A stretch of DNA of 35,967 nt, taken from assembly GCA_017436245.1 (NCBI GenBank), contig JAFSDN010000070.1:1-35967 (forward strand), written 5' to 3'. The stretch comes from Clostridia bacterium (GTDB lineage Bacteria; Bacillota; Clostridia; Monoglobales; Monoglobaceae). A model generated the notes under the pieces. The model saw only the letters and a list, made by a program, of their open reading frames with translations, was not told the DNA's origin and made no database searches. Position numbers and translations under genes: made by a program. Position 1 is the first letter of the stretch. Every line of letters starts with the position of its first letter. Below, piece after piece: positions 15,818-24,805 of the stretch.

Positions 15818-15995
15818 TCAAATATTGGGGTTTAGTACAAAAAAGATGTTTCGACTACGCTCAACATGACCTTGTACCGACAAGCTTTAGTCATTCTGAG
15901 CGCAGCGAAGAATCTTTACAAAGCATTCACTCCAACATTTGCTATAGAACCCTCAAATATTGGGGTAAAGATTATTCGACTTCGCTCAGAATGAC
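15818..15995. repeat. R1 repeat cluster flanked by a 14-base direct repeat
   Basis: Three R1 half-units (about 15843-15871, 15891-15918 and 15967-15995) lie in alternating orientation. The direct repeat TCAAATATTGGGGT occurs at 15818-15831 and again at 15953-15966. This fills the gap between the surface operon and the convergent regulator gene. Confidence 0.8.
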
Positions 15996-19368: not shown

Positions 19369-19500
19369 AATGTCATTAAGTTAAGCAGCTTGTCATTCTG
19401 AACGTAGTGAAGAATCTTTGTAGCAAATAAGATTCTTCGACTTCGCCTTGTGGCTACGCTCAGAATGACTCTTTGCAAATATCCTTAACTTAATGACATT
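19369..19500. mobile_element. MITE-like element with 17-base perfect terminal inverted repeats and R1 core
   Basis: The ends AATGTCATTAAGTTAAG (19369-19385) and CTTAACTTAATGACATT (19484-19500) are exact inverted repeats. Inside is an R1 palindrome (TCATTCTGAACGTAGTGAAG ... CTACGCTCAGAATGA). No transposase is encoded, so any movement would need one supplied elsewhere. The right end stops about ten bases before the ribosome binding site of the dehydrogenase gene. The element should therefore be a long hairpin in that operon's leader. Confidence 0.8.
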
Positions 19501-22936: not shown

Positions 22937-23920
22937 ATGAAACAGGCGCAACAAAAGCTGAAGCTGATGTATCTTGCAAAGATTCTGACCGAAGAAACCG
23001 ATGAAGAAAATACAATGACAGTTCCGCAGATGATTGGGGAGCTTGCAAAGGTTGGGATTTCGGCTGAGCGCAAAAGCATTTATGACGATTTGGAACAGCT
23101 TCAGTTGTTTGGACTGGATATTTGTTCCCGAAAATCACGCACAACAGATTACTATGTTGCAAGCCGTGATTTCGAGCTTCCCGAGCTGAAGCTCCTTGTG
23201 GACAGTGTTCAGTCGGCAAAGTTCATCACAAGAAAAAAGAGTATGGAGCTGATTTCAAAAATCGAAAAGCTCACAAGTCACGAAAACGCAAAAAAGCTCC
23301 ACCGTCAGGTTTTTGTGACAAATCGGGTGAAGACTCTCAATGAACAGATTTATTATAATGTTGACAAAATTCATGATGCCATTGCCGCAAACAGACAAAT
23401 AAAGTTCAGATATTTCAATATTGGCATTGACAAGCAAAAGGAATATCGCAAGGATGGCGGTTTTTATACCGAATCGCCTGTTGCACTCAGTTGGGATGAC
23501 GAGAATTATTATATGATTGCGTACAAGAAAAAATATGACAGTTATGTTCATTACCGTGTTGACAAAATGGAAGCAATTTGTGAAACAGAGGAGGAGCGGG
23601 TTCTTTCGGATACGCCCTTTGACCTTTCGGAATATTCAAAGACGATGTTTCAGATGTTTGGCGGTGAGGAAACCGATGTTTCAATGGAATTTCACAACAG
23701 CCTGATTGGTGTTGTTTATGACAGGTTCGGGCTTGATGTTCCTGTTCTGAAGACCGGTGACGAACATTTTTTGTGCCGCACAAAGATTGCCGTGAGTCCA
23801 CAGTTTCTTTCGTGGATTATGAGCTTTGGCAGTAAAGCAAAAATCATTTCGCCTCAACGGGTGGTGGATGAGATTTGTAACCTTGCGGCGGCGGTAAAAG
23901 ATAATTATTTGGAAAAGTAA
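22937..23920 (+). CDS. WYL-domain transcriptional regulator (DeoR/YafY type)
   Basis: A regulator of 327 residues. The N-terminal winged helix region (about 1-65: VPQMIGELAKVGISAERKSI, then YDDLEQL) fits the HTH_11 type. The WYL domain lies at about 140-215: IKFRYFNIG, then VALSWDDENYYMIAYKKKYD. The Ser-Trp-Asp variant stands in place of the classical WYL triplet, as is common. A C-terminal WCX-like part follows (about 235-327). WYL domains sense ligands, often nucleotides or nucleic acid. It sits six bases after the cyclo-ligase and is probably co-transcribed with it, with AAAGGGGTGA as ribosome binding site. No target gene can be assigned. Confidence 0.9.
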   Translation: MKQAQQKLKLMYLAKILTEETDEENTMTVPQMIGELAKVGISAERKSIYDDLEQLQLFGLDICSRKSRTTDYYVASRDFELPELKLLVDSVQSAKFITRKKSMELISKIEKLTSHENAKKLHRQVFVTNRVKTLNEQIYYNVDKIHDAIAANRQIKFRYFNIGIDKQKEYRKDGGFYTESPVALSWDDENYYMIAYKKKYDSYVHYRVDKMEAICETEEERVLSDTPFDLSEYSKTMFQMFGGEETDVSMEFHNSLIGVVYDRFGLDVPVLKTGDEHFLCRTKIAVSPQFLSWIMSFGSKAKIISPQRVVDEICNLAAAVKDNYLEK

Positions 23921-24059
23921 AAAAGATAAAGATTCTTCGCTACGCTCAGAATGACGGTTGCGGAGCGGTAGTTTTGCGGATAAAAAAGATTCTTCGCCAA
24001 TGGCTCAGAATGACATCAGAACATTCATCCTGAGCGTAGCGAAGAATCTTTATCTTTTT
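23919..24059. repeat. Long inverted R1 repeat, probable bidirectional terminator
   Basis: The left arm (AAAAGATAAAGATTCTTCGC, then TACGCTCAGAATGA) and right arm (TCATCCTGAGCGTAGCGAAG, then AATCTTTATCTTTTT) pair over about 34 bases with a single mismatch. A third R1 unit lies between them. It starts at the WYL stop codon and ends 20 bases from the mini-ORF stop, so it separates two convergent units. Confidence 0.88.
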
Positions 24060-24078: not shown

Positions 24079-24159
24079 TTAGTTGCGGCCTGTTGTCACA
24101 ATTGATTTCATAACTTGCGGAAAGAGAAGTGCAATTCCTACTGCTGCAATGAAGCCCAT
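24079..24159 (-). CDS. 26-residue hydrophobic mini-protein, unrecognised
   Basis: A reading frame of 26 codons plus stop. It begins MGFIAAVGIALLFPQVMK and ends SIVTTGRN. A perfect AGGAGG lies eight bases before the ATG, and an extended -10 promoter (TGGTATAAT) is about 45 bases upstream. The N-terminal two thirds could form one membrane helix with a positively charged end. I know no family for it. Dedicated expression signals on an otherwise empty stretch are the case for its being real. It lies downstream of the GNAT gene on the same strand. Confidence 0.6.
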   Translation of the reverse strand: MGFIAAVGIALLFPQVMKSIVTTGRN

Positions 24160-24205
24160 ATCTTTATCCTCCTGTTTGGTATTGTATGTTTATCTTTATG
24201 TCTTG

Positions 24206-24234
24206 ATTATACCAAGCAAGGTGTCCGAAAAAAA
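24206..24234 (-). promoter_or_regulatory. Extended -10 promoter for the mini-protein
   Basis: On the - strand TGGTATAAT (-10 box at 24206-24211) gives an extended -10 element. The -35 position holds only a T run, so the call rests on the -10. The flanking GTCC...GGAC inverted pair with its T run could end the upstream GNAT transcript. Confidence 0.55.
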
Positions 24235-24260
24235 GGACAGTGAAGTTTATTTTTGATTAT

Positions 24261-24677
24261 TTATATTTGAAATTTCATCCATATGTGGGGGCAGTCTTCT
24301 TCGCATTCAATCTCGCCATATTCCTTGAAGCCGTTTTTTGCATAAAAATCCTTTGCATGAAGCTGTGAGTGAAGAATGAGCGCTTCGCCGCCTATTGACC
24401 GAACATATTCCTTTGCGGCGTCAAGCATCATACTGCCGTAATTTTTGCCACGGCACTCTTTTTTTACTGCAAGTCTGCCAAGGGCAAAGATTTTTGGGCT
24501 TTCGAACTGAAAGACTCTGCATGCCGCAACGGGCAATTTGTTTTCAAACATCACAAAGTGAACGGCAACATCGTCAACCTCGTCATAATCGTAGGAAAAC
24601 CCCTGTTCATCAATAAAAACTGTTTCTCTGACCGTTTTTGCTTCGGGAGGAAGGGTGTTATATATTTTTATTTCCAT
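24261..24677 (-). CDS. GNAT-family N-acetyltransferase (ElaA/YjcF-like)
   Basis: A small acetyl-CoA-dependent acyltransferase of 138 residues. Motif A is clear (LGRLAVKKECRGKNYGSMML, the R-G-x-x-Y-G acetyl-CoA loop). The N-terminal VRETVFIDEQGFSYDYDEVD and the later LHSQLHAKDFYAKNGF and HIWMKF match the YjcF/ElaA group. The start has GGAGTGAG upstream. It is transcribed alone, away from the membrane-protein gene. The acceptor substrate is unknown for most of this group. Confidence 0.88.
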   Translation of the reverse strand: MEIKIYNTLPPEAKTVRETVFIDEQGFSYDYDEVDDVAVHFVMFENKLPVAACRVFQFESPKIFALGRLAVKKECRGKNYGSMMLDAAKEYVRSIGGEALILHSQLHAKDFYAKNGFKEYGEIECEEDCPHIWMKFQI

Positions 24678-24805
24678 ATTATTTTCTCACTCCGTATATA
24701 AGTTCAATGTATAAGTTGAGGTAGTGTTTTTTTGAATTATAACATATAGTTTTTTTGTTTTCAAGGCGGCGCGGACAAAAGTTTTGAAAATCCGACACTT
24801 ATTAA

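What the first reader, a model, noticed from the sequence alone, without database searches (positions are those of the whole stretch)
24079..24159. 26-codon hydrophobic mini-ORF with full expression signals
A tiny frame (MGFIAAVGIALLFPQVMK...TTGRN) has an exact AGGAGG at ideal spacing and an extended -10 promoter, in a gap otherwise filled with repeats. Usual gene callers would miss it. A single membrane helix with a basic tail could be a regulator of a membrane complex or a small toxin.
Basis: partly seen in the sequence, partly recalled or inferred. Interest (0 to 1): 0.6.

Follow-up and report, generated by a model that had tools for sequence, protein, structure and literature searches.

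The report
Orphan mini-gene behind a shared promoter
A 26-codon, membrane-type mini-gene with real-looking start signals sits behind a palindrome-containing promoter that related bacteria use for quite different genes; the peptide itself has no detectable relative, so it is probably an expressed orphan or a vestige rather than a known small protein.

Summary
The frame is real as described, but it lies on the minus strand (24159 to 24079): MGFIAAVGIALLFPQVMKSIVTTGRN, AGGAGG 8 nt before ATG, extended -10 TGGTATAAT. SD plus frame plus extended -10 never occurred in 20,000 shuffles of the gap. No family, phage or plasmid relative was found. Pattern scans of 51 order-level genomes and about 85,000 species genomes found no homologue. 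Three same-genus genomes that keep the upstream acetyltransferase (61-64% identity) lack it.

New: the promoter is conserved, the peptide is not. A dyad TGTCC-N8-GGACA in the -35 region, the -10 and part of the leader recur in four other genomes and one viral contig, ahead of unrelated genes. In G173 the dyad and a 216-aa gene lie convergent to the same WYL-regulator orthologue (75%), exactly where the mini-ORF lies here. Most likely: an expressed single-helix orphan peptide under a repressible promoter. Main rival: a promoter left driving a remnant. The regulator is unproven: the neighbouring WYL protein or an XRE-type repressor. Regulator-of-complex or toxin function is neither supported nor excluded.

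The parts
24079..24159 (-). mini-ORF, 26 codons plus stop: MGFIAAVGIALLFPQVMKSIVTTGRN
   Evidence: translation; no homologue
24168..24173 (-). Shine-Dalgarno AGGAGG, 8 nt before the ATG
   Evidence: sequence; shuffles
24206..24214 (-). extended -10, TGGTATAAT
   Evidence: sequence; similar -10 in relatives
24222..24239 (.). dyad TGTCC-TTTTTTTC-GGACA overlapping the -35 region, probable operator
   Evidence: exact pattern in 4 of 51 order genomes, control 0; conserved in the 5-sequence alignment
23920..24059 (.). palindromic dispersed repeat, 30-bp stem with T-rich tails on both sides; probably a bidirectional terminator between two convergent genes
   Evidence: repeats; fold (z -4.7); terminator role inferred (strict scan with short loops finds none)
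22937..23920 (+). WYL/WCX transcriptional regulator gene, convergent with the mini-ORF; candidate regulator
   Evidence: Pfam PF13280, PF25583; orthologue convergent with a dyad-bearing promoter in G173
24261..24677 (-). GNAT acetyltransferase gene just upstream on the same strand
   Evidence: Pfam

Best explanation
An expressed orphan small protein under a regulated promoter. A transcription factor binds the TGTCC-N8-GGACA dyad over the -35 region and controls an extended -10 promoter (inferred: probably repression). RNA polymerase starts near 24198, the roughly 40-nt leader presents AGGAGG, and a 26-residue peptide with one short hydrophobic helix and a basic C-terminal tail is made and likely inserts in the membrane; transcription ends in the palindromic repeat shared with the convergent WYL gene. 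The promoter-operator is a shared control element with exchangeable downstream genes; the mini-ORF is the local occupant. Shown: sequence signals, promoter conservation, changing downstream genes, convergent WYL arrangement in a second genome. Inferred: expression, membrane insertion, repression, regulator identity. What the peptide does is open; the likeliest role is a membrane-acting small protein made when the repressor is released.
For: SD + frame + extended -10: 0 of 20,000 shuffles. Dyad pattern CACTGTCCTTTTTN2-4GGACA once each in 4 of 51 order genomes, 0 control hits, plus G173 elsewhere in the class; alignment of the five promoters is identical over both dyad arms and the T run, similar over the -10 and leader. 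Each of the five has an ORF with a start codon close behind it. In G173 the promoter and its 216-aa gene lie convergent to a 75% WYL orthologue, the same layout as here. All five dyad genomes carry that WYL orthologue at 71% or more, against 8 of the other 89 genomes searched. It is the only dyad of this T-rich form in the genome.
Against: No homologue of the peptide in 51 order genomes (3 mismatches allowed), about 85,000 species genomes or viral, phage and plasmid collections, so no conservation argues that the peptide itself is selected. The hydrophobicity is only a 1 in 30 to 1 in 60 event by chance. Eight genomes have the WYL orthologue and no such dyad found by the exact patterns.
Confidence: 0.5

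Rival explanations
1. Vestigial unit: the conserved promoter once drove a longer gene (such as the 216-aa gene that sits there in G173); that gene was lost or cut by a repeat-associated rearrangement, and the mini-ORF is the leftover start or a chance frame behind an intact SD, with no function of its own.
For: Same position and orientation next to WYL is taken by a 216-aa gene in G173; the mini-ORF stops about 20 nt before the palindromic repeat; no homologue of the peptide anywhere.
Against: No trace of the 216-aa or 84-aa gene in the gap by tblastn; the peptide start is not the start of any longer protein found by pattern; SD and spacing are intact.
Confidence: 0.3
2. The functional product is the RNA: a roughly 200-nt regulated small RNA ending in the palindrome, with the frame incidental or dual-function.
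For: The transcript as drawn folds better than shuffles (z -4.7).
Against: The fold is almost wholly the dispersed repeat; no Rfam match in the region; a perfect SD argues for translation; the promoter's relatives all drive coding frames.
Confidence: 0.1
3. Type I toxin-like membrane peptide with an antisense RNA antitoxin.
For: Short, hydrophobic, basic tail; repeats on the convergent side (sequence).
Against: No promoter-like site on the opposite strand within or downstream of the frame; no padloc, PHROGs, Pfam or NCBIfam match; a probably regulated promoter is already present.
Confidence: 0.05

Closest known systems
Small single-helix membrane proteins under a regulated promoter (e.g. MgrB in the PhoQ/PhoP regulon; abstract of PMC8404706)
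   Same: short hydrophobic peptide, own SD and promoter, regulated expression likely
   Different: no sequence relation claimed, no partner gene identified, no conservation of the peptide; MgrB is 47 aa and a known kinase inhibitor
WYL-domain repressors with inverted-repeat operators (BrxR, PMC9122601; CapW)
   Same: WYL protein gene next to an inverted repeat close to a -10 element; promoter control inferred
   Different: BrxR operators are 11-bp repeats with a 5-bp spacer upstream of brxR itself; here 5-bp arms with an 8-bp spacer at the promoter of a convergent gene; no defence genes; no PDB sequence match of the WYL protein
XRE-type phage repressor operators
   Same: related dyads CTGTCC-KTTTT-GGACAC lie between genes close to small XRE-like proteins on several viral contigs (L094, L099, L103)
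   Different: no XRE gene next to the mini-ORF; the link is by motif resemblance only and the XRE calls were made by eye

Membership tests
functional small membrane protein (sORF) | translation signals beyond chance | tested here: met
   0 of 20,000 shuffles with SD, frame and extended -10
functional small membrane protein (sORF) | conserved peptide in relatives | tested here: not met
   none at species distance; strains not available
functional small membrane protein (sORF) | transmembrane helix | tested here: inconclusive
   best 19-mer mean hydropathy 1.9, helix contains P14
functional small membrane protein (sORF) | peptide detected in cells | not testable with these tools
   no expression data
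type I toxin-antitoxin | antisense RNA promoter on the opposite strand | tested here: not met
   plus-strand promoter-like sites only at 24792 and beyond (consensus scan)
type I toxin-antitoxin | toxicity on expression | not testable with these tools
   needs bench
KdpF/CydX-type complex subunit | adjacent genes of the complex | tested here: not met
   neighbours are folate, WYL, GNAT and DUF624 genes
WYL (BrxR-like) regulon | operator bound by the WYL protein | not testable with these tools
   co-occurrence and one shared convergent layout only
XRE repressor operon | XRE gene adjacent to the dyad | tested here: not met
   in the window the genes flanking the dyad are WYL and GNAT; XRE-like genes lie near such dyads on some viral contigs (by eye)

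The most novel reading that the evidence does not exclude
A conserved promoter-operator cassette whose downstream gene is exchanged between species (216-aa protein, membrane proteins, a 26-residue peptide), with the mini-ORF as a recently born, functional membrane peptide that was recruited to this regulated slot.
Probability: 0.25. Interest if true: 0.5.

Novelty: new member of a known kind. Interest (0 to 1): 0.3.

Why it matters
If the frame is translated, it adds an orphan membrane peptide that annotation misses. The promoter is the more useful part: one dyad-controlled promoter is kept across distant genomes while its cargo changes, which gives a clear handle (one operator, one candidate WYL regulator next to it) to find what turns it on and so what the peptide responds to.

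Tried and rejected
Family libraries (Pfam weak DUF4244 hit, E 0.03, below cutoff; NCBIfam, PHROGs and padloc empty). Plasmid tblastn gave only E 4-8 hits in rhizobia. The genome-wide RBS+N-terminus pattern gave three chance hits (Methanoregula, Balneolaceae, Methanolinea). The viral hit with MGFIAAVG lies inside a longer open frame and reads on differently; from memory it resembles high-light-inducible proteins, not a relative. Remnants of the 216-aa or 84-aa genes in the gap: none. The 216-aa protein has no family and no viral relatives. A published operator of this sequence: none of the 8 papers listed (of 34 sharing an 11-mer) concerns a bacterial operator of this kind, judged by title. The search for related loci refuses queries this short; structure prediction was not attempted (under 30 residues).

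Full report
Observation. The frame at 24079-24159 is on the minus strand: MGFIAAVGIALLFPQVMKSIVTTGRN followed by TAA. AGGAGG ends 8 nt before the ATG and TTGGTATAAT stands about 45 nt upstream of the ATG. There is no good -35 hexamer; instead the perfect dyad TGTCC-TTTTTTTC-GGACA (24222-24239) covers that place. Downstream lies a palindromic repeat (arms 23920-23959 and 24020-24059), pieces of which recur elsewhere in the window, then the end of a convergent WYL regulator gene. Upstream on the same strand is a GNAT acetyltransferase gene.

Chance. In dinucleotide shuffles of the 340-bp gap an AGGAGG-led ATG frame of 20 or more codons appears in 45 of 20,000, and with an extended -10 upstream in none; over the whole window the SD-led frame alone is expected about 0.5 times. 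So the SD by itself is weak evidence and the combination is strong. The other AGGAGG-led frames of more than 20 codons in the window are long frames.

The peptide has no relatives I can find: Pfam, NCBIfam, PHROGs, padloc, phages and plasmids, 38 genomes of the family by protein (a weak test, since no candidate passed the first look for so short a query), 51 genomes of the order by a degenerate 10-codon pattern with 3 mismatches, and about 85,000 species genomes by GGAGG plus MG[FLIMV][IM]AA[VIM]G (three chance hits). Same-genus genomes that keep the GNAT gene at 61-64% identity have other genes behind it. Strain-level relatives were not available; this is the main gap in the evidence.

The promoter has relatives. 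The pattern CACTGTCCTTTTTN2-4GGACA occurs once each in 4 of 51 order genomes with no hit for the reversed control, and once more in G173, another family of the class. In an alignment both dyad arms and the T run are identical and the -10 and part of the leader (ACATAAAGA-like) are similar. The genes behind it differ: the 216-aa protein (no family) in G010, G018 and G173, an 84-aa hydrophobic protein in G042, the mini-ORF here. A viral contig has the same kind of dyad and -10 ahead of a signal-peptide-like protein. The other class hits of the looser pattern (G258, G464, G480) do not look like promoters and the control had two hits, so that looser scan is not by itself significant.

Who binds the dyad? 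In G173 the dyad promoter and its 216-aa gene lie convergent to an orthologue of the window's WYL gene (75% identity), the same layout as here. All five dyad genomes carry this orthologue at 71% or more; 8 of the other 89 genomes searched do. These genomes are related and G173 was chosen for its dyad, so I give no p-value. WYL repressors such as BrxR are known to bind inverted repeats near -10 elements (PMC9122601). Against this, in G010, G018 and G042 the WYL gene is on another contig, and related dyads on several viral contigs lie near small XRE-type proteins (judged by eye). Regulator identity therefore stays open, about 0.4 for the WYL protein.

Mechanism. Best reading: a repressible promoter drives a short mRNA that ends in the palindromic repeat and yields a small single-helix peptide with a basic tail. 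Expression, membrane insertion and repression are inferred. The main rival, a promoter left driving a remnant where G173 keeps a 216-aa gene, cannot be excluded, though no trace of such a gene remains.

Verdict. It is a plausible orphan small membrane protein of a known kind, with a modestly interesting conserved promoter.

Noticed in passing
window 23920-24059, 15899-15986, 19401-19460, 29461, 30861: Dispersed palindromic repeats with TCAGAATGAC / AAAGATTCTTCGC blocks in several places, probably acting as bidirectional terminators where they lie between genes.
   Followed up: partly
G010:C4:7813-8460 (L026), G018 (L027), G173 (L060 2501-3151): A 216-aa protein family without any confident Pfam, NCBIfam or PHROGs match, behind the TGTCC-N8-GGACA promoter in all three genomes seen, absent from 48 of 50 relatives.
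   Followed up: partly
window 22937-23920: The WYL regulator is 71-76% identical across different families of the class while the neighbouring GNAT gene is only about 62% identical within the genus; the patchy distribution suggests horizontal transfer or strong constraint.
   Followed up: no
viral contigs L079, L094, L099, L103: Dyads CTGTCC-KTTTT-GGACAC in intergenic positions near small XRE-like proteins or promoter-like sites: a likely phage repressor operator type.
   Followed up: partly
G000 contig C94:41341-41359 (L017): A longer palindrome GTGTCC-N9-GGACAC in the chromosome of the same genome, upstream of a 155-aa gene beginning MNKIASFTVDHRFIREWIYISR.
   Followed up: no
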